Positions 40,307-51,913 of a DNA stretch of 64,000 nucleotides are shown one piece after another (the stretch's first letter is position 1; every line of letters begins with the position of its first letter). The DNA comes from Muribaculaceae bacterium (GTDB taxonomy: Bacteria > Bacteroidota > Bacteroidia > Bacteroidales > Muribaculaceae): positions 1-64,000 of the forward strand of contig JAFUKL010000036.1 in NCBI GenBank assembly GCA_017473615.1, given 5' to 3'. The notes under the pieces were generated by a model. The model made no database searches, was not told the origin of the DNA, and worked only from the letters and a program-made list of their open reading frames with translations. A program made the translations under genes and the position numbers.

Positions 40307-42382
40307 TTATTTAAGTTTAAGATTTTTCCATTTGTCGCCCATTGTAAATCCTGACACAACGGTAGGCGTTTGAGATTTGTGATTTTTCTGAAGAGATTTT
40401 ACTGATACTTCTGCTGTTACATAATTACTTAATTCCTGCAAACTCACATCTCCCCGGGTTTCTTTGAGTTTTTTAAGTATATAGTATGTGAACATACCAT
40501 GCTTTTTTTCATCGTAAGCCAATGCCGACTGGCTACTCGATGCTGCGCTGAACACTACCACATTTCCTTCAATATCTTCTTCATCGACATCGATTTCTAT
40601 GCTGCGAGCAGCGAAAAGCATCTCAGTCTTACCGTCTTCATCGACATTTCTTGAGCCTCCGCTAAAGCAAGCATCGAGGAATACTGTTACACAATTAGCA
40701 TTCATTTCGCTGAATTCAGTATATAGAGAAGAAAGAGAATAGCACACTCTCATTTGCTTTCCATCGGCATCGACAGGTAACAGATGTGCTGACTTTGACT
40801 TTTCATCGGGAACACCGTGTCCTGCATAATAGAAAATGAAATTACAATTGCCGCGTTTAGCAGCAGCAAGTGCTTTCATATATTCAATGGCGTCAACTAA
40901 TTCTCCGAAAGTAGTGTTTCTGTAATTGGTTATATTATCATTAGGGATACCGAGGACTTTATGGCAATACTCGGCAAACACGTTGCCATCGTTCTCGGCA
41001 TTCTTCACATTGATCACCTTATCATATTTCTCATTTGCTATTATGATGGCGAATGTGTTATCGTTGTTGGTCTTATTTACAGGAATATCAATGTCTACAT
41101 CCGATTTTGTCTGTGCAGGAGTTGAGATAGCTTGATTTGCATTGTTTTGTGGCTGAGTGACGGGCTGAGCCGGTTGCGTATTGTCGGCGTACGTGACCGG
41201 TTGTGACACAGGAGCCATCAGGTTAGGTGTCTTGGGCTTGCTTGTATAAGCCATAAATTGCATGTTGCGCTCCGTGGTTACAGCAGGAGAATATCCTATA
41301 GCTTGAATTTTATTATTTATGGCATTCAAGTTGTAGGTATCGCCAATGTAGGCATAGGCTTTAGCAAGAGCATAGGCATAATCGATAGCCAAAGGATCGT
41401 TATAAAATACGGCTTCGAGTTCTTTTACCGCCGAAGAGAAGTATAATAGTGCTTTTTGTTTATACTTGTCTGTCTCTTTCTTGCTTGCATCAGAAGAGAA
41501 TGCTTTATTGGCGTATATTGCACCGGCGTTGTAATAGTTAACCGAAAGGTGACGTGCAAATTCTAGATTTTGTGGTTTCATTTCCCTCAGCTGCTTACAC
41601 ATCTCTATTGCCTGCTCAAAGTTTTGGGTACGTTCATAAAGTTGTGCCTGAATGTAAATTAATGCTTCCTTGTTTTTCCGGTTCATTTGCGGATTATTGG
41701 ATTTCAATTTAGAAATATACCGTTGAAGAGCCGTATCATTACTCTTGTTTTCGCCCAAAATATTTATGATTGACTGAAGCATTTCTACATGGTCGGGATA
41801 TAGAACAAGCCCTTGTTCCAAAATGTGTTGTGACTGGGGAATGTTGTTCAGCAGTTCATAGGATTTAGCCATTCTATAATAGGCTTCGGCTCTATGTTCG
41901 GCTTTCCCCGAGTTGATATATGCTTGAGAGTATTTTATGACTTTGTCATATTGTCTTGTGTTCCAACTTTCCACCAATCCCATATATGCGAATTGAGCAT
42001 ATTCTTGTGCTAAGGTCAATGCCTCGTTTTGCATAGTTTCATGCATGGAAATGTCAATATATGCTTGGATGAACTGATGAACTTTATCATATTCTTTTAA
42101 ACTGTAATAGAAAAAAACACCATCGCTCAGGAGAGGATATAACTTTTTTAAGCCGGCTTTGGCTTGCTGAAAGTCGGCGTTATTCATGTTCAGTACACCC
42201 CAATATTGCTCAAAGCTACGATATAGCTCATTATATGTGCTGCGGCTTTCTCCGGAGGCAGATTTACTTCTAATGAATTCGTTGTAATGTGCTACAGCAT
42301 TCTTTATGGATTGTGCCATTGATGTTGTATAACAGCAAAGCAACAATGCTGTCAGGTAAAATATCTTTGATTTTCTACGCAT
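40307..42382 (-). CDS. Exported TPR-caspase (peptidase C14 family)
   Basis: About 691 aa with a signal peptide (TALLLCCYTTSMAQ). Residues ~30-370 are helical repeats of TPR character (YYRMAKSYELLNNIPQSQHI). A Gln/Pro/Asn linker (~385-430) leads to a C14 caspase domain (~440-690). The catalytic His is in FYYAGHG (~521) and the Cys in FLDACFSGGS (~571), so both catalytic residues are intact. Caspase-like proteases cleave after basic or acidic residues. The ATG at 42382 is chosen; an ATG at 42394 would overlap the upstream gene by 11 bp. A secreted, TPR-bearing caspase beside a propeller protein is notable. Confidence 0.88.
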   Translation of the reverse strand: MRRKSKIFYLTALLLCCYTTSMAQSIKNAVAHYNEFIRSKSASGESRSTYNELYRSFEQYWGVLNMNNADFQQAKAGLKKLYPLLSDGVFFYYSLKEYDKVHQFIQAYIDISMHETMQNEALTLAQEYAQFAYMGLVESWNTRQYDKVIKYSQAYINSGKAEHRAEAYYRMAKSYELLNNIPQSQHILEQGLVLYPDHVEMLQSIINILGENKSNDTALQRYISKLKSNNPQMNRKNKEALIYIQAQLYERTQNFEQAIEMCKQLREMKPQNLEFARHLSVNYYNAGAIYANKAFSSDASKKETDKYKQKALLYFSSAVKELEAVFYNDPLAIDYAYALAKAYAYIGDTYNLNAINNKIQAIGYSPAVTTERNMQFMAYTSKPKTPNLMAPVSQPVTYADNTQPAQPVTQPQNNANQAISTPAQTKSDVDIDIPVNKTNNDNTFAIIIANEKYDKVINVKNAENDGNVFAEYCHKVLGIPNDNITNYRNTTFGELVDAIEYMKALAAAKRGNCNFIFYYAGHGVPDEKSKSAHLLPVDADGKQMRVCYSLSSLYTEFSEMNANCVTVFLDACFSGGSRNVDEDGKTEMLFAARSIEIDVDEEDIEGNVVVFSAASSSQSALAYDEKKHGMFTYYILKKLKETRGDVSLQELSNYVTAEVSVKSLQKNHKSQTPTVVSGFTMGDKWKNLKLK

Positions 42383-42383
42383 G

Positions 42384-44507
42384 TCAGAAAGCATTTATAA
42401 AGGTGAACTCTACATTAATACGGCGGTATTTTCCGCCTCTTTTATCAGATAACTCTATGTTGTACTGATAGTCGGTGTTCATATCGTTCAATGTTTTTAC
42501 GTTACGCTGAATGTAGTCTTTGACTGCTGATGCACGAATGAAAGCAAGCTGTTCGTTCTTCTTGATTCCTGATTTTTGTGTTACGCTGATTGAACTCATC
42601 ATGCCGTCGATGTGGCACGGTTCATTCTCAAATTCTCCATAACTGCCATCGTATGCGATGTTGCCGTTTATTGGTAGAGCGTCGGCTGAACCTGTGATTT
42701 TTACCTTAACTTTCTTGCCTGCTTGTATATATTGTGCAAAGTCGGTCTCAAATGCTTGAGCTACGATTTTCAACATAGATTCAGCTGCATTGGATTCTTT
42801 AATTTTGTATTTTCCTGCAGGGAAATCCTCATGAGTGGAATATCCCGATTCTACTGTGTAGTTGAAACCTATTTTATAATTGGTGATTTTGTTTCCTGCT
42901 GCGTCAAAATCGGAGACAACGGCTGTATTGACTTGAATATTGGTGTGGTCGGAAATCAATTTTTGCTTCTTAGCCATTTCTACCACGTTCTTTTTGATGG
43001 TGTTGAGTTTAACCTCTTCCATGCTCGACAACTGTACGATTTCGATAGGTACAAATTCCGATTCGGCTGAGAGGAAATCAAGTGATTGACGGTTCAAGTT
43101 GTTGAAAGTATATTGTTTTCCTGTTGCCTTGTTGTACACGTCGGCATAAATAAGCTCAAACTTGTCGTCCTTTGTTATGCCATACACTGCATTTCTGAAT
43201 TCAAGATTTTCCGTTACCATGAAATCCTGTACTTCCTTTTCCGGAACTGTGAGGTATACAGTGGGAAGATTGTCGAAATTAAGTGTCAACATGCTGTTCT
43301 CCGGATTGTATCCGCCAAGCGTTACTGTAGACATCGTAACCATATCATCGGCAAGTCTTGTGGCTATTTCCTGTTCGAATAGTCTTGCTTGAATAATGCG
43401 TGATTCCTCATTGACACGAAGTTTATATTCATCAAGGCTCTCATCGTCTCGAATCTTAGCCCATTCTTCCATTTTTGCCAGAAGTTCGTCTCTCAACATC
43501 TTTGTATAATTAGGAGAGAATCCTGTCAACTGCTTGTATTTTATGGATTTATTGGAGTTATAACTTAGATAGATGTTTTGCTTGCCATCCCGAACAAATT
43601 TAACGTAGGAAACCATTCCGTCCGGTTCTATAATGAATGGACGGTCGCCGATGTCATTTATATTCACAAATGATATAGTGTTGTATGATGATGCAACCGA
43701 TATGTATTTACCTTCGGGGTGGAAAGAAAACGAAGTGGGATTCCCGGTGAGCTGTATGGTTGTTTTTTGAGAGAAAGTTCTTGTGTCATAGATTGTTATG
43801 CTACTCGACATTAAAATACCAAGCATTGAAGAATCATCGGAGAATGATATATGGCGAATATCGGAATCGGGAGAAATACTTGTTCTCACCTTGCCGTTTT
43901 CAATATCGATTACAGCTGTTGTGTGCGGTTCGGATACTGCCAAGAAATAACCGTTTTTACTTGCTTCCATTTTACCGGGTACGCAAGGTGAATGTATGGC
44001 TCTTACGAAACGGAACGTCTTGGTGTCATACACATATATCATACGGTCGGATGCGGCTATATATAATTTTTTACTATCATAACTATATGCTATAGCCGTA
44101 GGGTTTTTTATGTCCTTAAACTCATGTATTTTGTCGTTGGCGGTGACTGCATCATAAATCTCAACTACACTACGCTTGCCGTTACTTGAGAGAATTGCAT
44201 AGGATGTACCTGTGGGATTTACCTTGATAGATTGTATCTTCATGGGAGATTGGCTGATAGTGAATCCTTTAAGATTGTAAGTCTTTTTGCCTGTCCCATA
44301 ATAGGTACTGTAAAGATAGTTATCGAGGACTTCCGGATTGACCTGTTGCCGATAGGTGAGATTTTTCTTTACGTTTAAACGACTTTGTTGTGCTGTAGTG
44401 TGGGTACTGCAAGTTGCGCATATCAAACCGCAAATGAGCGTCATTTTCCATCCTCGCATGGTTATCTTGTGGAAGACGGAATGAAATTTTGTTCTTAGAT
44501 TTATCAT
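42384..44507 (-). CDS. Exported beta-propeller protein with OmpA-like C-terminal domain
   Basis: 707 aa with a signal peptide cleaved near TTAQ. Residues ~80-340 form a WD40/YVTN-like propeller (YDSKKLYIAASDRMIYVYDT repeats several times in varied form). A coiled segment (RDELLAKMEEWAKIRDDESL) follows, then beta-rich domains. The last ~130 residues look like a diverged OmpA C-terminal domain: VKVKITGSADALP in place of GHTD, NEQLAFIRASAVKDYIQRN in place of NxxLSxxRAxxV, and RRINVEF. That would bind peptidoglycan. First gene of a five-gene operon, with -7 box TAACTTTG 32 bp upstream. Confidence 0.8.
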   Translation of the reverse strand: MINLRTKFHSVFHKITMRGWKMTLICGLICATCSTHTTAQQSRLNVKKNLTYRQQVNPEVLDNYLYSTYYGTGKKTYNLKGFTISQSPMKIQSIKVNPTGTSYAILSSNGKRSVVEIYDAVTANDKIHEFKDIKNPTAIAYSYDSKKLYIAASDRMIYVYDTKTFRFVRAIHSPCVPGKMEASKNGYFLAVSEPHTTAVIDIENGKVRTSISPDSDIRHISFSDDSSMLGILMSSSITIYDTRTFSQKTTIQLTGNPTSFSFHPEGKYISVASSYNTISFVNINDIGDRPFIIEPDGMVSYVKFVRDGKQNIYLSYNSNKSIKYKQLTGFSPNYTKMLRDELLAKMEEWAKIRDDESLDEYKLRVNEESRIIQARLFEQEIATRLADDMVTMSTVTLGGYNPENSMLTLNFDNLPTVYLTVPEKEVQDFMVTENLEFRNAVYGITKDDKFELIYADVYNKATGKQYTFNNLNRQSLDFLSAESEFVPIEIVQLSSMEEVKLNTIKKNVVEMAKKQKLISDHTNIQVNTAVVSDFDAAGNKITNYKIGFNYTVESGYSTHEDFPAGKYKIKESNAAESMLKIVAQAFETDFAQYIQAGKKVKVKITGSADALPINGNIAYDGSYGEFENEPCHIDGMMSSISVTQKSGIKKNEQLAFIRASAVKDYIQRNVKTLNDMNTDYQYNIELSDKRGGKYRRINVEFTFINAF

Positions 44508-44726: not shown

Positions 44727-44755
44727 ATTATTTTGTTGTTTTGATGCGTGATTTG
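44727..44755. repeat. 29-bp direct repeat, left end of the DUF3791/DUF3990 cassette
   Basis: Identical to 45770-45798. In minus-strand reading it encodes KSRIKTTK-stop, the C-terminus of the DUF4249 protein, so it is a copy of that gene's 3' end. Confidence 0.85.
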
Positions 44756-44758
44756 TTG

Positions 44759-44965
44759 TTATTGTGTATTGCGAAGTTCATGGATAATATCTTCTACAAT
44801 ATAGGCATCGCTCATAAGGTATAAACCTGATTGTTGCATCCGGAACATTTGGCTTGTTTTGCTATTGTAAAATATATTCAGAGCCCTTTGCGGTGATATG
44901 TCCAGAGTTTTAGCCAAGAGCAGTATTATACGAGCTGTTTTATTCCACATCAAAAAATCTTTCAT
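44759..44965 (-). CDS. DUF3791-like small protein, second copy (68 aa)
   Basis: The start MKDFLMWNK at 44965 overlaps the DUF3990 stop as ATGA. It has the DUF3791 pattern: an N-terminal helix (KTARIILLLAKTLDISPQRA), an F-Y pair, then YLMSDAYIVEDIIHEL in place of the usual YD.LHT...VEDI. It is 68 aa, close to the usual family size. It is the third cistron of the cassette and stops 3 bp before the left direct repeat. It probably binds the DUF3990 protein; direct evidence is lacking. Confidence 0.72.
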   Translation of the reverse strand: MKDFLMWNKTARIILLLAKTLDISPQRALNIFYNSKTSQMFRMQQSGLYLMSDAYIVEDIIHELRNTQ

Positions 44966-45459
44966 AAACCGAATTTGTTGTATTTGATGAATTTTAAGTG
45001 AGTGTCGATTATTTCTTGATTTCGAATACAAATTTGGTGATTTGGTTTGGCGTATGCCAATTGCCCCAAAGTAGTTTCTACCGATGCATATCCTGCAATG
45101 TAGGCTTCTACAGCTTCTATGACTTTATCATCAGCAATGCCTCCTTCAATAATATCATAGAGTTCCCACGGTGATTCTCCTTTTCTGCTTGCAACGATAA
45201 ATTCCAGCCATTGTTTATCATAAGAAGTAAAACGACATATCCGATAGGCGTTATCTTTAAAAATCCGTTCGTCAAATTCATAATGGCTCACATAAGCTGT
45301 GCTTGAACCTCGTTGGATACTGATTCTTCTTGCCCATTGCTCGGCTTGTTTGTATATGGAAGTCAGATAGAATCCCGGACCGAAATCCAAATTCTTTCTG
45401 CCAATATTCACCAAAGGCTCACTGATGATGGTACTTGAACCATGATATAATAAAATCAT
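44962..45459 (-). CDS. DUF3990 ADP-ribosyltransferase-like protein (165 aa)
   Basis: The N-terminal LYHGSS (His6) and LDFGPGFYLTSIYKQAEQWA (Tyr31) match the H and Y positions of the ADP-ribosyltransferase fold seen in DUF3990. YDIIEGGIADDKV follows, and NHQICIRNQEII near the C-terminus supplies a Gln at the expected third position. It has no signal peptide, so it is cytosolic. The start at 45459 (MILLYHGSS) overlaps the upstream stop as ATGA; the longer start at 45486 is inside that gene. Flanked by two DUF3791 genes. A toxin role is inferred from ART family behaviour. Confidence 0.78.
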   Translation of the reverse strand: MILLYHGSSTIISEPLVNIGRKNLDFGPGFYLTSIYKQAEQWARRISIQRGSSTAYVSHYEFDERIFKDNAYRICRFTSYDKQWLEFIVASRKGESPWELYDIIEGGIADDKVIEAVEAYIAGYASVETTLGQLAYAKPNHQICIRNQEIIDTHLKFIKYNKFGL

Positions 45460-45713
45460 GAAAGTACTCCTCCTTTCTTTTCCCATAGCAGGAGTGCTTC
45501 TTCTACATTTTCGGCTACAGCGTCAATGCTTTCGCTGTGTAATGTATCGTAACAGCCAAAAATGAATTTGTTCAAGAGATTGACATTGTTAAGTCTGTTA
45601 AGCAGAACTTCAGGGCTGAGATTCATTCTTTTTGCTGTGGCTTCAATGGCAATTACTGCGAAATGGATTTTATTGTTATCCGTATCAGGCTCTATGTGAT
45701 TATATCTTTCCAT
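45456..45713 (-). CDS. DUF3791-like small protein, first copy (85 aa)
   Basis: The start MERYNHIEP at 45713 lies 13 nt after the predicted transcription start; the longer ORF start at 45761 precedes it. The family pattern is clear: IHFAVIAIEATAKRMNLSPE, LLNRLNN, then GCYDTLHSESIDAVAENVEE. It is cytosolic and acidic. First cistron of the cassette, coupled to DUF3990 by ATGA. DUF3791 commonly accompanies DUF3990 genes, which suggests an immunity or antitoxin function, unproven. Confidence 0.78.
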   Translation of the reverse strand: MERYNHIEPDTDNNKIHFAVIAIEATAKRMNLSPEVLLNRLNNVNLLNKFIFGCYDTLHSESIDAVAENVEEALLLWEKKGGVLS

Positions 45714-45731
45714 ATAGAAAATTGTTATGTG

Positions 45732-45762
45732 CAAATATACGATATTTGATGCCAATAACAAA
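45732..45762 (-). promoter_or_regulatory. Consensus promoter inside the cassette
   Basis: On the minus strand TTTG (45762-45759), 19 nt, TATATTTG (45739-45732). It lies between the right direct repeat and the first cistron, so the cassette carries its own promoter. Confidence 0.75.
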
Positions 45763-45769
45763 GAAATGG

Positions 45770-45798
45770 ATTATTTTGTTGTTTTGATGCGTGATTTG
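45770..45798. repeat. 29-bp direct repeat, right end of the cassette
   Basis: Identical to 44727-44755. It contains the last codons and stop of the DUF4249 gene. Confidence 0.85.
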
Positions 45799-46604
45799 CT
45801 GATACCGTAGCCTATCCAATAACCGTAGCCTCCTTGAATGTTGGTATAAAGATTGGTTTGCTGCTTGAAGAATATATTTGAGCCGAAATTAACGATGTTG
45901 TCGTAATCACACCATATATCATAGCTTTCTTTATTGATGCGTGATAATCTCACTTCTACAACAGAGCCAATCGGAAAATAAGGTATATAATCTTTTGTGG
46001 TTTTGAGTTTGGCACGGTATAGCGGTATGGATATTTTGCCATCGGAAGGACGGGTACTGATTGTGCCGAGGAATGAGGGGTAAAACCTGCTTTCGGTGTT
46101 GTATTCCCGGTATCTTATCCTGAAATAGTCGGTTTCGTCTCTATCAGGCGTAAAATGAACGTTTATGGAACGTAGTGTATCATTGTCTTCCACATTCCCT
46201 ACGGATATAGAGTCTATTTCAATAGGAGTGGGAACGGTGGTCTTTGCCGTGGCTTTCATGCCTTTGTATTCAACCTCTAATGTGTAGGTCTTTCCTGCCT
46301 CTCCTCTGAAGTCATAACTTATGTAGGAGTAGGGCGGAAAATAACGTTTGTCCGGGCTGCCGGTCAAGATATATGTTTTGTCGTCGAAATGTATGCTGAC
46401 CTTTGCCCAGCGTACCATAAAATCGGCGACTTCGTCTCCGTCATTGTCGATATTTCCGCTCAAACTTACCAAGACAACGGGAAACTCTCCGTTTTCAATC
46501 CATCCTTCGATAACGAGTTTTTGTTCCTCGGCAGGATATTCCTTGCTGCATGAAGCAAGAATATTAAGTAGCAGTAATAGGATTATTGCGATTTGACTTT
46601 TCAT
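45771..46604 (-). CDS. DUF4249 lipoprotein
   Basis: 277 aa. The lipobox is ILASC with Cys at ~19. The mature part is beta-rich: KLVIEGWIENGEFPVVLVSL, then EAGKTYTLEVEYKGMKATAK, then TDYFRIRYREYNT, the typical DUF4249 order. These lipoproteins pair with a TonB receptor and probably act at the outer membrane in substrate capture. It starts 4 bp after the receptor stop. Its last nine codons lie inside the right 29-bp repeat and are therefore intact. Confidence 0.85.
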   Translation of the reverse strand: MKSQIAIILLLLLNILASCSKEYPAEEQKLVIEGWIENGEFPVVLVSLSGNIDNDGDEVADFMVRWAKVSIHFDDKTYILTGSPDKRYFPPYSYISYDFRGEAGKTYTLEVEYKGMKATAKTTVPTPIEIDSISVGNVEDNDTLRSINVHFTPDRDETDYFRIRYREYNTESRFYPSFLGTISTRPSDGKISIPLYRAKLKTTKDYIPYFPIGSVVEVRLSRINKESYDIWCDYDNIVNFGSNIFFKQQTNLYTNIQGGYGYWIGYGISKSRIKTTK

Positions 46605-50325: not shown

Positions 50326-51123
50326 ATGAATCCGAGTAAATTCAAGCAACAGGTTATCGTATCTCTAACCTCATTTCCTGCGGCAATACCGTATGCAGGT
50401 CGGGCTATTCAATCCATACTTGAAGGTTCTGTTCTTCCCGATAAGGTGGTGCTTTATCTTACTTTTTCTCAATTTGAAGAGGAAAGTATAGATGTACCGC
50501 AAGACCTATTGAAGTTGGCAGAGGAAAATCCTCGGTTTGAAATACGTGACTATCCGCAGGATATACGTTCATATAGGAAATTGATACCGGCATTGATTGA
50601 TTTCCCCGATGCTGTGATAGTGACCATTGATGACGATGTGAAATATCATAGGCATATGTTGCGGGATTTACTTCGATTGCATGAAGAGGTGCCGTGTGCG
50701 ATATTAGCACATAGAGCCAAACTGATAATACCTGATAAGCCTTACCGCAAATGGCGTAAGTATAGGTGGTATCATTTTTTACTGAAACGAATTTATTCGG
50801 GATATAGAAACATGCAGACCGGTGTAGGCGGTGTGCTATATCCGCCGCATTCATTGAAGAAGGAGATGCTTGCTGTGGAACTGTTTACCGAATTGGCTCC
50901 TACGACTGATGATATATGGTTTTGGGCAGCCGGAGTTGCCAATGATTATCCTGTTGTACCTGTTCCATTCGGTTATAATAAGCCAAAAGGTTTAGGAAAA
51001 CCGCATAAATTATCGTTGAAAACCACCAATTTCAAATCGGGAACTGATCGAAATGTCTCGGCATTAAAGGCTGTTCTTGAAAGATTCCCGCTTGTTAAAC
51101 AAAAGATGGAAAATGATGAATAA
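50326..51123 (+). CDS. GT-A glycosyltransferase-like protein, tandem copy 1 (265 aa)
   Basis: The protein opens with VIVSLTSFPAAIPYAGRAIQ, then LPDKVVLYLTFSQFEE, and has the metal-binding triad VTIDDDVKYH. A basic middle (DKPYRKWRKYRWYHFLLKRI) may touch the membrane. PTTDDIWFWAAGV is a conserved acceptor-site motif. It is a cytosolic glycosyltransferase of the family found in LPS and capsule loci. The ATG at 50326 (MNPSKFKQQ) is used; a GTG three codons earlier is possible. It overlaps the second copy by 11 bp. Confidence 0.82.
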   Translation: MNPSKFKQQVIVSLTSFPAAIPYAGRAIQSILEGSVLPDKVVLYLTFSQFEEESIDVPQDLLKLAEENPRFEIRDYPQDIRSYRKLIPALIDFPDAVIVTIDDDVKYHRHMLRDLLRLHEEVPCAILAHRAKLIIPDKPYRKWRKYRWYHFLLKRIYSGYRNMQTGVGGVLYPPHSLKKEMLAVELFTELAPTTDDIWFWAAGVANDYPVVPVPFGYNKPKGLGKPHKLSLKTTNFKSGTDRNVSALKAVLERFPLVKQKMENDE

Positions 51124-51913
51124 GAATAACGGTAGAGAAAAGATTGTAGTAACTCTGACTTCATTTCCTGCGGCAATACCGTATGCAGGTCGGGCTATTC
51201 AATCCATTCTTGAAGGTTCTGTTTTGCCCGATAAAATAGTGCTTTATCTCACTTTCTCTCAATTCGAAGAGGACGGTATGGATATACCGCAAGAACTATT
51301 GAAGTTGGCAGAGGAGAATCCTCGATTTGAAATACGAGACTATCCTCGAGATATACGTTCATATAGAAAATTGGTACCGGCGTTGTTGGATTTTCCTGAT
51401 GATGTAATAGTGACTATTGATGATGATGTGATTTACCATACTGATATGCTGAAAGAGTTGTTGCGTGTGCATAAACAGATTCCCAATGCGATAGTTGCTC
51501 ATCGGGTGAGACGTATCAGACCGGATAAACCTTATCGTAAATGGCATAAATATAAATGGTTTTATTTTTTGTTAAAAAGGATTCATGCCGGTTATAGAAA
51601 TTTGCAGACCGGTGTAGGAGGAGTGTTGTATCCTCCACATTGCATGAAACAGGAAATGATAGATGAGGAGTTATTTACAAAGATGGCTCCGACAACTGAT
51701 GATATCTGGTTCTGGGCTGCCGCTGTTGCTAACGGCACGCGTATAGTACCTGTGCCTTTTGGTTGTTACAGACCTGTAGATATAGAAAAACCGAGCGAAT
51801 TGTCTTTAAAAACGGTAAATTTCAGGTCGGGAGTAGATAGGAATGCTACTGTATTGAGAACTATTCTTGAGGAGTATCCTGAAATAAGAGAAAGAATCGG
51901 ATATAAAAAATAA
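51113..51913 (+). CDS. GT-A glycosyltransferase-like protein, tandem copy 2 (266 aa)
   Basis: A paralogue of the preceding gene with the same motifs (VVTLTSFPAAIPYAGRAIQS, VTIDDDVIYH, PTTDDIWFWAAAV) and near-identical N-terminal DNA. A 47-nt stretch (51161-51207) is identical to 50371-50417. The C-terminal halves differ more (YRPVDIEKPSELSLKTVNFR), so acceptor preference may differ. The ATG at 51113 overlaps the first copy's end, suggesting translational coupling. It is 10 bp upstream of a Stealth gene. Confidence 0.82.
   Translation: MMNKNNGREKIVVTLTSFPAAIPYAGRAIQSILEGSVLPDKIVLYLTFSQFEEDGMDIPQELLKLAEENPRFEIRDYPRDIRSYRKLVPALLDFPDDVIVTIDDDVIYHTDMLKELLRVHKQIPNAIVAHRVRRIRPDKPYRKWHKYKWFYFLLKRIHAGYRNLQTGVGGVLYPPHCMKQEMIDEELFTKMAPTTDDIWFWAAAVANGTRIVPVPFGCYRPVDIEKPSELSLKTVNFRSGVDRNATVLRTILEEYPEIRERIGYKK

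What the first reader, a model, noticed from the sequence alone, without database searches (positions are those of the whole stretch)
44727..45798. Self-contained DUF3791-DUF3990-DUF3791 cassette bounded by a perfect 29-bp direct repeat
Three genes coupled by two ATGA overlaps, with a consensus promoter inside, occupy about 1.0 kb. They are bounded by identical 29-bp repeats at 44727-44755 and 45770-45798. The right repeat is the real 3' end of the DUF4249 gene; the left is a copy of it. This resembles site-specific insertion at a gene's 3' end with restoration of the coding end, but no integrase or transposase is inside. The central protein has H and Y positions of an ADP-ribosyltransferase fold. 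Two DUF3791 proteins of different length flank it, suggesting a toxin with two partners or sensors. I know of no characterised mobilisation route for such a cassette.
Basis: partly seen in the sequence, partly recalled or inferred. Interest (0 to 1): 0.85.

Follow-up and report, generated by a model that had tools for sequence, protein, structure and literature searches.

The report
Toxin-like gene cassette with target duplication
A three-gene, toxin-antitoxin-like cassette seems to have entered the end of a host gene in a way that left a short copy of that gene's end on its other side, and about one in six sampled relatives of the cassette carries the same kind of scar at unrelated sites, which suggests that such cassettes can move without an integrase of their own.

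Summary
The block matches PADLOC's candidate defence system PDC-M13 gene for gene; DUF3990 is in Pfam's ADP-ribosyltransferase clan. Of 133 DUF3990 genes tested in the same bacterial family, 21 are bounded by direct repeats (19 to about 250 bp) just outside the unit, against 4 of 358 control positions. The repeats share no sequence; they copy whatever lies there: gene 3' ends, promoter-like stretches, a tRNA 3' half, terminators. The cassette ends show no inverted repeats. One relative has a gene pair joined that a cassette separates elsewhere. Unrelated AbiE operons behave alike (14 of 65; matched controls 0 of 124). This fits 'insertion with long target duplication', known for restriction-modification systems, better than site-specific integration at gene 3' ends. 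New variant of a known kind: I found no report of this route for PDC-M13 or AbiE.

The parts
45771..46604 (-). DUF4249 gene, the insertion target; its last 8 codons and stop lie in the right repeat
45770..45798 (-). right copy of the 29-bp direct repeat (intact 3' end of DUF4249)
45732..45762 (-). promoter-like TTTG-19-TATATTTG upstream of the cassette genes
   Evidence: consensus recalled
45456..45713 (-). DUF3791 gene (PDC-M13A-like), putative antitoxin or partner
44962..45459 (-). DUF3990 gene (PDC-M13B), putative ADP-ribosyltransferase-fold toxin or effector
   Evidence: clan from PMC7955679 (passage)
44759..44965 (-). second small gene, divergent DUF3791-like (PDC-M13C), putative second partner
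44727..44755 (-). left copy of the 29-bp direct repeat, 3 bp after the third stop codon
44756..45769 (-). inserted block between the repeats, 1,014 bp

Best explanation
The block is a self-sufficient PDC-M13-type, toxin-antitoxin-like cassette (promoter, DUF3791 partner, DUF3990 protein of the ADP-ribosyltransferase clan, second DUF3791-like partner) that entered the 3' end of a DUF4249 gene by insertion with long target duplication. A short stretch of the target (here 29 bp) ends up on both sides, so that the right copy still ends DUF4249 correctly and the left copy still joins the old downstream DNA. Neither neighbour is damaged and no att site is needed. Relatives show the same scar at many unrelated targets, and so do unrelated AbiE operons. 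The direct repeats would allow precise loss by recombination, which a toxin-antitoxin pair would select against. Shown: the repeat, the genes, the enrichment of such scars around the cassettes, the lack of inverted repeats at their ends, one sister empty site. Inferred: the molecular act of insertion (for instance joining of cassette DNA into a long staggered break), mobility today, toxin and antitoxin activity.
For: Perfect 29-bp repeat at gene end and cassette end. In the same family 21 of 133 tested DUF3990 genes have a flanking direct repeat scoring 19 or more, the next best scores 13, and position controls give 4 of 358; ORF-centred controls 2 of 137 at score 17 or more. Setting aside five loci whose repeat is a hairpin, GC-rich or multi-copy sequence (L040, L041, L058, L061, L174) leaves 16. 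Repeats copy different local features: gene 3' ends (glycosyltransferase in L137, ComM in L115, symporter in L152), starts or promoter-like upstream stretches (L159, L051, L084, L063, L096, L140, L172; by eye), a tRNA-Phe 3' half (L121). Of 19 loci re-read in stretches of 3.9 to 18 kb, 16 have exactly two near-full-length copies. No terminal inverted repeats in the 21 cassettes. AbiE comparator: 14 of 65 usable loci score 19 or more, 13 of them just outside the operon, for instance L295, where about 100 bp include a gene 3' end; matched position controls 0 of 124. Sister empty site: ComM directly followed by YraN in G323, with a cassette between them in G112. DUF3822 gene in one genus: 3 genomes with the cassette, 3 without. 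Toxin-like side: ART clan, C-terminal domain of an Rhs type VI effector, place beside a zeta toxin on a conjugative plasmid where two related plasmids have other genes, one a YoeB-type toxin, and G340, where the DUF3990 gene is reduced to a 35-codon in-frame remnant while both small genes stay open.
Against: 112 of 133 DUF3990 genes show no such repeat, nor do three plasmid copies (L262-L264; L264 with 151 bp upstream only) or 12 phage-contig copies scored (best 14). No empty site could be examined for the window itself. At the DUF3822 locus three species carry the cassette at the same promoter, and one contig holds four copies of one 37-bp repeat around several genes: some sites are used repeatedly, more than a purely random process predicts. 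Left flanks differ between species at several loci, so most relatives are imperfect empty sites. Several AbiE repeats are hairpins (L291, L293, L331, L350) that I did not check for further copies, and L291 and L293 look like one site in two genomes. No experiment shows movement or toxicity; no structure was obtained, and no solved structure matches by sequence.
Confidence: 0.72

Rival explanations
1. Site-specific integration by a tyrosine recombinase supplied in trans (from an integrative or mobilisable element or a phage): the repeats are attL and attR, and the cassette is a minimal non-autonomous passenger.
For: Targets include gene 3' ends and a tRNA 3' half, the classical choice of such enzymes (recalled). 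A run of genes bounded by the same repeat and repeated use of one promoter look like site preference.
Against: At least 19 distinct sites share no sequence, many are promoter-like, start or terminator stretches, and cassette ends share no inverted repeat. Repeat length varies from 19 to about 250 bp (355 bp for one AbiE locus). One enzyme per target would be needed. The inner 913 to 1,579 bp of the 21 cassettes leave little room beside the three genes; I did not scan each for an integrase.
Confidence: 0.15
2. The repeats arose after insertion, or without it, by local tandem duplication or gene conversion of terminators and promoters, or are dispersed terminator repeats.
For: For L040, L041 and L061 the repeat is a hairpin-type sequence with further copies nearby. 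At the DUF3822 locus copies within one genome are more alike than between species, which needs homogenisation or independent insertions.
Against: 16 of 19 re-read loci have exactly two near-full-length copies, several contain coding sequence, and the copies sit just outside the unit; controls are near 1%.
Confidence: 0.08
3. Capture by homologous recombination of a donor fragment that already carried cassette plus repeats, so that this copy spread by exchange of flanks and the founding insertion happened elsewhere.
For: G053 and G128 share cassette and right flank but differ on the left; the DUF3822 locus is used in three species of one genus.
Against: It does not explain the founding duplications at many unrelated targets. 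For the window no relative with the same site was found.
Confidence: 0.05

Closest known systems
Insertion with long target duplication of restriction-modification systems (Nobusato et al. 2000; Furuta et al. 2010: neither seen, known through passages of PMC3874152, PMC3031569 and PMC1643837)
   Same: Small gene unit not linked to a known mobile element, direct repeats of variable length copied from the target.
   Different: Here the cargo is a DUF3791-DUF3990 or an AbiE cassette and the host family lies within or near the Bacteroidales; many repeats are shorter (19-50 bp) than the order of 100 bp given for restriction-modification systems.
PADLOC candidate defence system PDC-M13
   Same: All three proteins match its A, B and C models in order.
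   Different: Candidate only; the one paper found gives an abundance count (PMC13356809, passages); nothing on activity or mobility in those passages.
ADP-ribosyltransferase clan families such as DarT, RES, TNT (clan list in PMC7955679, passage)
   Same: DUF3990 is listed in the same Pfam clan; H6, Y31 and Q142 are invariant.
   Different: No structure and no activity tested; a third catalytic residue was not identified.
AbiE toxin-antitoxin operons
   Same: In the same genomes they are bounded by the same kind of repeat.
   Different: Unrelated proteins, two genes.
Integrons and tyrosine-recombinase islands
   Same: Cassette bounded by repeats, often at gene ends.
   Different: No integrase in the window's block, no shared recombination site among relatives.

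Membership tests
PDC-M13 (PADLOC candidate) | adjacent A, B and C proteins | tested here: met
   A E 1.2e-10, B E 7.3e-49, C E 2.5e-12; of 49 third ORFs scanned (of 130), 47 match a PDC-M13C model
PDC-M13 (PADLOC candidate) | protects against phage | not testable with these tools
   no experiment possible
Insertion with long target duplication | direct repeat of target sequence directly bounding the unit | tested here: met
Insertion with long target duplication | variable repeat length and no target consensus across members | tested here: met
   19 to about 250 bp; no shared sequence seen, strongest of 66 boundary columns 0.49 bits against a null mean of 0.13, no formal test
Insertion with long target duplication | single copy at the empty site in a relative | tested here: inconclusive
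   met at ComM-YraN in one of three relatives; not examinable for the window
Toxin-antitoxin system | small overlapping genes, patchy distribution, presence on plasmids | tested here: met
   ATGA overlaps; plasmids; DUF3990 in 121 of 247 genomes of the family
Toxin-antitoxin system | toxicity and neutralisation | not testable with these tools
   needs expression tests
ADP-ribosyltransferase clan | conserved H and Y of the NAD site | tested here: met
   H6 and Y31 invariant in the 50-row alignment; Y31 invariant and H6 in at least 90% of the 11-row alignment; their role is recalled
ADP-ribosyltransferase clan | fold with NAD pocket | not testable with these tools
   structure prediction switched off; no solved relative by sequence
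Site-specific integrative element | integrase gene and common att core | tested here: not met
   no integrase in the window's block; no shared core among relatives
Transposon or IS | terminal inverted repeats and fixed-length duplication | tested here: not met
   own ends score 5.3 on average, swapped ends 5.2; repeat length varies

The most novel reading that the evidence does not exclude
Insertion with long, variable target duplication is a general, integrase-independent route by which unrelated toxin-antitoxin and abortive-infection cassettes (PDC-M13, AbiE and probably others) spread through this branch of the Bacteroidales, perhaps driven by a shared host process or by DNA damage from the toxins themselves.
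Probability: 0.35. Interest if true: 0.8.

Novelty: new variant of a known kind. Interest (0 to 1): 0.6.

Why it matters
How small toxin-antitoxin and abortive-infection modules without transposases come to sit at different sites in different genomes is, to my knowledge, open. The scars counted here give a testable answer for two unrelated modules: 12-16% of the sampled PDC-M13 loci (16 to 21 of 133) and about 20% of the AbiE loci (13 to 14 of 65) carry target duplications, against 4 of 358 and 0 of 124 control positions. They also explain how such cassettes can sit at gene ends without breaking the gene, and they give exact insertion endpoints with which a mechanism can be sought.

Tried and rejected
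Empty site of the window: the two same-genus genomes have no DUF4249 match. The neighbouring WD40 gene has no match in G001 and 35% identity in G002; none of 11 WD40-homologue loci (1.5 kb flanks) has DUF4249 or DUF3990 beside it, and none of the DUF4249 loci held has the WD40 or caspase gene beside it. YqeY locus (L063): right flank found in relatives, left flank not. The L115 DNA query was spoiled by a tRNA-Ser inside it; three useful places were fetched, of which G323 shows ComM-YraN joined and two show other upstream genes. L137: the glycosyltransferase gene has no cassette after it in G064 and G025, but the next genes differ.

Plasmids: beside the zeta toxin of pBF9343 stands a DUF3791-DUF3990 pair, in CP103229 and CP018939 other genes; no flanking repeat. 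PHROGs, NCBIfam and solved structures gave nothing useful. Of the phage contigs, 12 were scored for flanking repeats and none exceeded 14. Single-sequence search of viral contigs found none. A paper search on ART toxins in Bacteroidetes found none.

Rejected: transposon (no inverted repeats, variable duplication), integron (no shared site), site-specific 3'-end integration as the sole rule. Sampling limits: DUF3990 loci were the best-scoring matches (30 given, 100 fetched) plus L004 and L005; weaker listed and unlisted matches were not fetched; L001, L002, L003 and the window were dropped as duplicates; 2 of 135 genes with under 250 bp on a side were dropped. Of 70 AbiE loci 65 were usable; L347 has its second copy 1,128 bp away and is not among the 13. 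With 1,400-bp windows DUF3990 gives 22 of 132; the extra one was not inspected. Of the 4 positive controls, two are the similar loci L070 and L073, one is in the window (near 50,600) and one in L008.

Full report
What is there. On the minus strand the order is DUF4249, right repeat, promoter, DUF3791 gene, DUF3990 gene, small DUF3791-like gene, left repeat, then DNA leading to a WD40 and caspase gene pair. The repeat is perfect over 29 bp and occurs nowhere else in the window even with three mismatches. Between the copies lie 1,014 bp with a TTTG-19-TATATTTG promoter and three genes joined by two ATGA overlaps; the third stop codon is 3 bp from the left repeat.

What the genes are. The three proteins match PADLOC's candidate system PDC-M13 A, B and C in order. 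In the same bacterial family 121 of 247 genomes carry DUF3990. In my sample 130 of 135 DUF3990 genes have a DUF3791 gene upstream, and 130 of 133 loci have a small third ORF downstream (a mechanical count); of 49 such ORFs scanned 47 match a PDC-M13C model. DUF3990 is listed in Pfam's ADP-ribosyltransferase clan (PMC7955679, passage) and is named as a domain in the C-terminal part of Rhs5 of a Serratia type VI system (PMC4524185, passage). H6, Y31 and Q142 are invariant in an alignment of the window protein and 49 relatives. On the conjugative plasmid pBF9343 a DUF3791-DUF3990 pair and a small gene sit beside a zeta toxin; in two related plasmids other genes stand there, in one of them a YoeB-type toxin. 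In G340 the DUF3990 gene is a 35-codon in-frame remnant while both small genes stay open, as expected if DUF3990 is the harmful partner. Toxicity itself is not shown. PDC-M13 is reported 3,324 times in rumen genomes (PMC13356809, passage).

Is the repeat a scar of insertion. I read 132 loci with 135 DUF3990 genes and asked for the best gapped direct repeat between 900 bp upstream and 900 bp downstream of DUF3990. Of 133 genes tested, 21 score 19 or more and the next scores 13; of 358 control positions in the fetched loci and the window 4 reach 19. The ORF-centred control gave 2 of 137 at 17 or more. In the 21, the upstream copy starts 234 to 817 bp before DUF3990 and the downstream copy 206 to 465 bp after it, and the length runs from 19 to about 250 bp. 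They come from 12 genera (genus labels) and at least 19 sites, counting L040 with L041 and L051 with L159 once. Five (L040, L041, L058, L061, L174) are hairpin, GC-rich or multi-copy sequences and may be set aside, which leaves 16. Of 19 loci re-read in 3.9 to 18 kb, 16 have exactly two near-full-length copies; L040, L041 and L061 have more.

What the scars contain. They are copies of the local neighbourhood (names): gene 3' ends (DUF4249 in the window, a glycosyltransferase in L137, ComM in L115, a symporter in L152), gene starts or promoter-like upstream stretches (DUF3822 in L159 and L051, YqeY in L063, a peptidase gene in L096, and L084, L140, L172, by eye), the 3' half of a tRNA-Phe (L121), and other intergenic stretches. 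The inner ends of the 21 cassettes show no terminal inverted repeat (mean score 5.3, swapped pairs 5.2); of 66 boundary columns the strongest has 0.49 bits against a null mean of 0.13, without a formal test.

Is it special to this cassette. As a comparator I took AbiE operons (PF08843), an unrelated two-gene system, in the same genomes. Of 65 usable loci 14 score 19 or more, and 13 of these have the copies within about 250 bp of the operon, up to 355 bp long. Position controls with the same geometry give 0 of 124 (run on loci other than the AbiE ones). L295 mirrors the window: about 100 bp that include the last codons of a gene stand on both sides. Four of the 13 repeats are hairpins whose further copies I did not look for, and L291 and L293 look like one site in two genomes. 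The scar thus seems to be a property of how small cassettes arrive, not of DUF3990.

Empty sites. In G112 a cassette with a 35-bp imperfect repeat separates ComM and YraN; in G323 of the same genus ComM and YraN are direct neighbours without a cassette; two other relatives have different genes before YraN. In another genus six of 34 genomes gave a DNA match to the DUF3822 gene: three carry the cassette before it (one with the DUF3990 remnant) and three do not; in two of these, G240 and G073, a single promoter-like stretch precedes the gene, in G201 the start differs (by eye). In the carriers, the copies within a genome agree better with each other than with those of other species and the end points differ, which speaks for repeated insertion at that promoter or for homogenisation; I cannot decide. 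The left neighbours also differ between these species. For the window itself no empty site is at hand.

How it most likely works. [quoted passage not shown] This is described for restriction-modification systems as long and variable target duplications, in the order of 100 bp (PMC3874152, PMC3031569, PMC1643837; passages). In those passages no molecular step is given, and I have none. A long staggered break filled in on both sides would give the structure; this is inference. The repeats would make precise loss possible, against which a toxin-antitoxin pair would select.

What is new. The route is in print for restriction-modification systems. I found no paper on it for DUF3990/DUF3791, PDC-M13 or AbiE. 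Searches: DUF3990 (4 papers, passages of two read), DUF3791 (1, listing only), PDC-M13 (1, passages), long target duplication (19, passages of four read), target duplication with toxin-antitoxin (5, of which two had passages read), AbiE with direct repeats and target site duplication (4, listing only, eukaryotic topics by title). The library holds open-licence papers only, and the two primary papers on the route were not seen (one look-up failed).

Limits. The DUF3990 sample is the best-scoring part of the list, not a random draw. Most cassettes (112 of 133) have no visible repeat: older, arrived otherwise, or lying in larger elements; I did not separate these.

Noticed in passing
G053:C4 (L242) 3653, 5151, 6830, 7858; G128:C4 (L243) 6748, 7776, 15804: A 37-bp terminator-like repeat, in several places preceded by what looks (by eye) like the 3' end of the glutamine synthetase gene found in L243, recurs four times in one contig with two ATPase genes (one checked: AAA_14/DUF4143) and a DUF3990 cassette between the copies, like a stack of insertions at one site.
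   Followed up: partly
G340 locus L228, reverse strand 875-1487: DUF3990 reduced to a 35-codon in-frame remnant while both small neighbours are open and a perfect 29-bp direct repeat stands on either side.
   Followed up: partly
L159 2735-2800: The duplicated start of the DUF3822 gene forms a short leader reading frame that ends in an overlap with the DUF3791 start codon.
   Followed up: no
window 50358-51400: A 237-column stretch is repeated about 790 bp further on (211 identities) around a glycosyltransferase-like ORF; it was the strongest control hit and is probably a tandem paralogue.
   Followed up: no
window 40307-44507: WD40/OmpA-like gene followed by a TPR-caspase gene; the WD40 protein has matches at E 1e-20 or better in 41 of 247 genomes of the family, with a second copy in this genome (G000:C49, 33% identity).
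   Followed up: no
G000:C14:13019-13489 (L081): A second DUF3990 cassette in the same genome, without flanking repeat (best score 11).
   Followed up: partly
plasmids NC_006873, CP103229, CP018939 (L262, L265, L266): The slot beside the zeta toxin gene holds DUF3791-DUF3990 in pBF9343, a hypothetical and an HTH gene in CP103229, and a YoeB-type toxin with others in CP018939.
   Followed up: partly
DUF3990 loci: The nearest upstream gene runs with the cassette in 17 of 20 repeat-bounded loci and in 61 of 96 others; not tested further.
   Followed up: no
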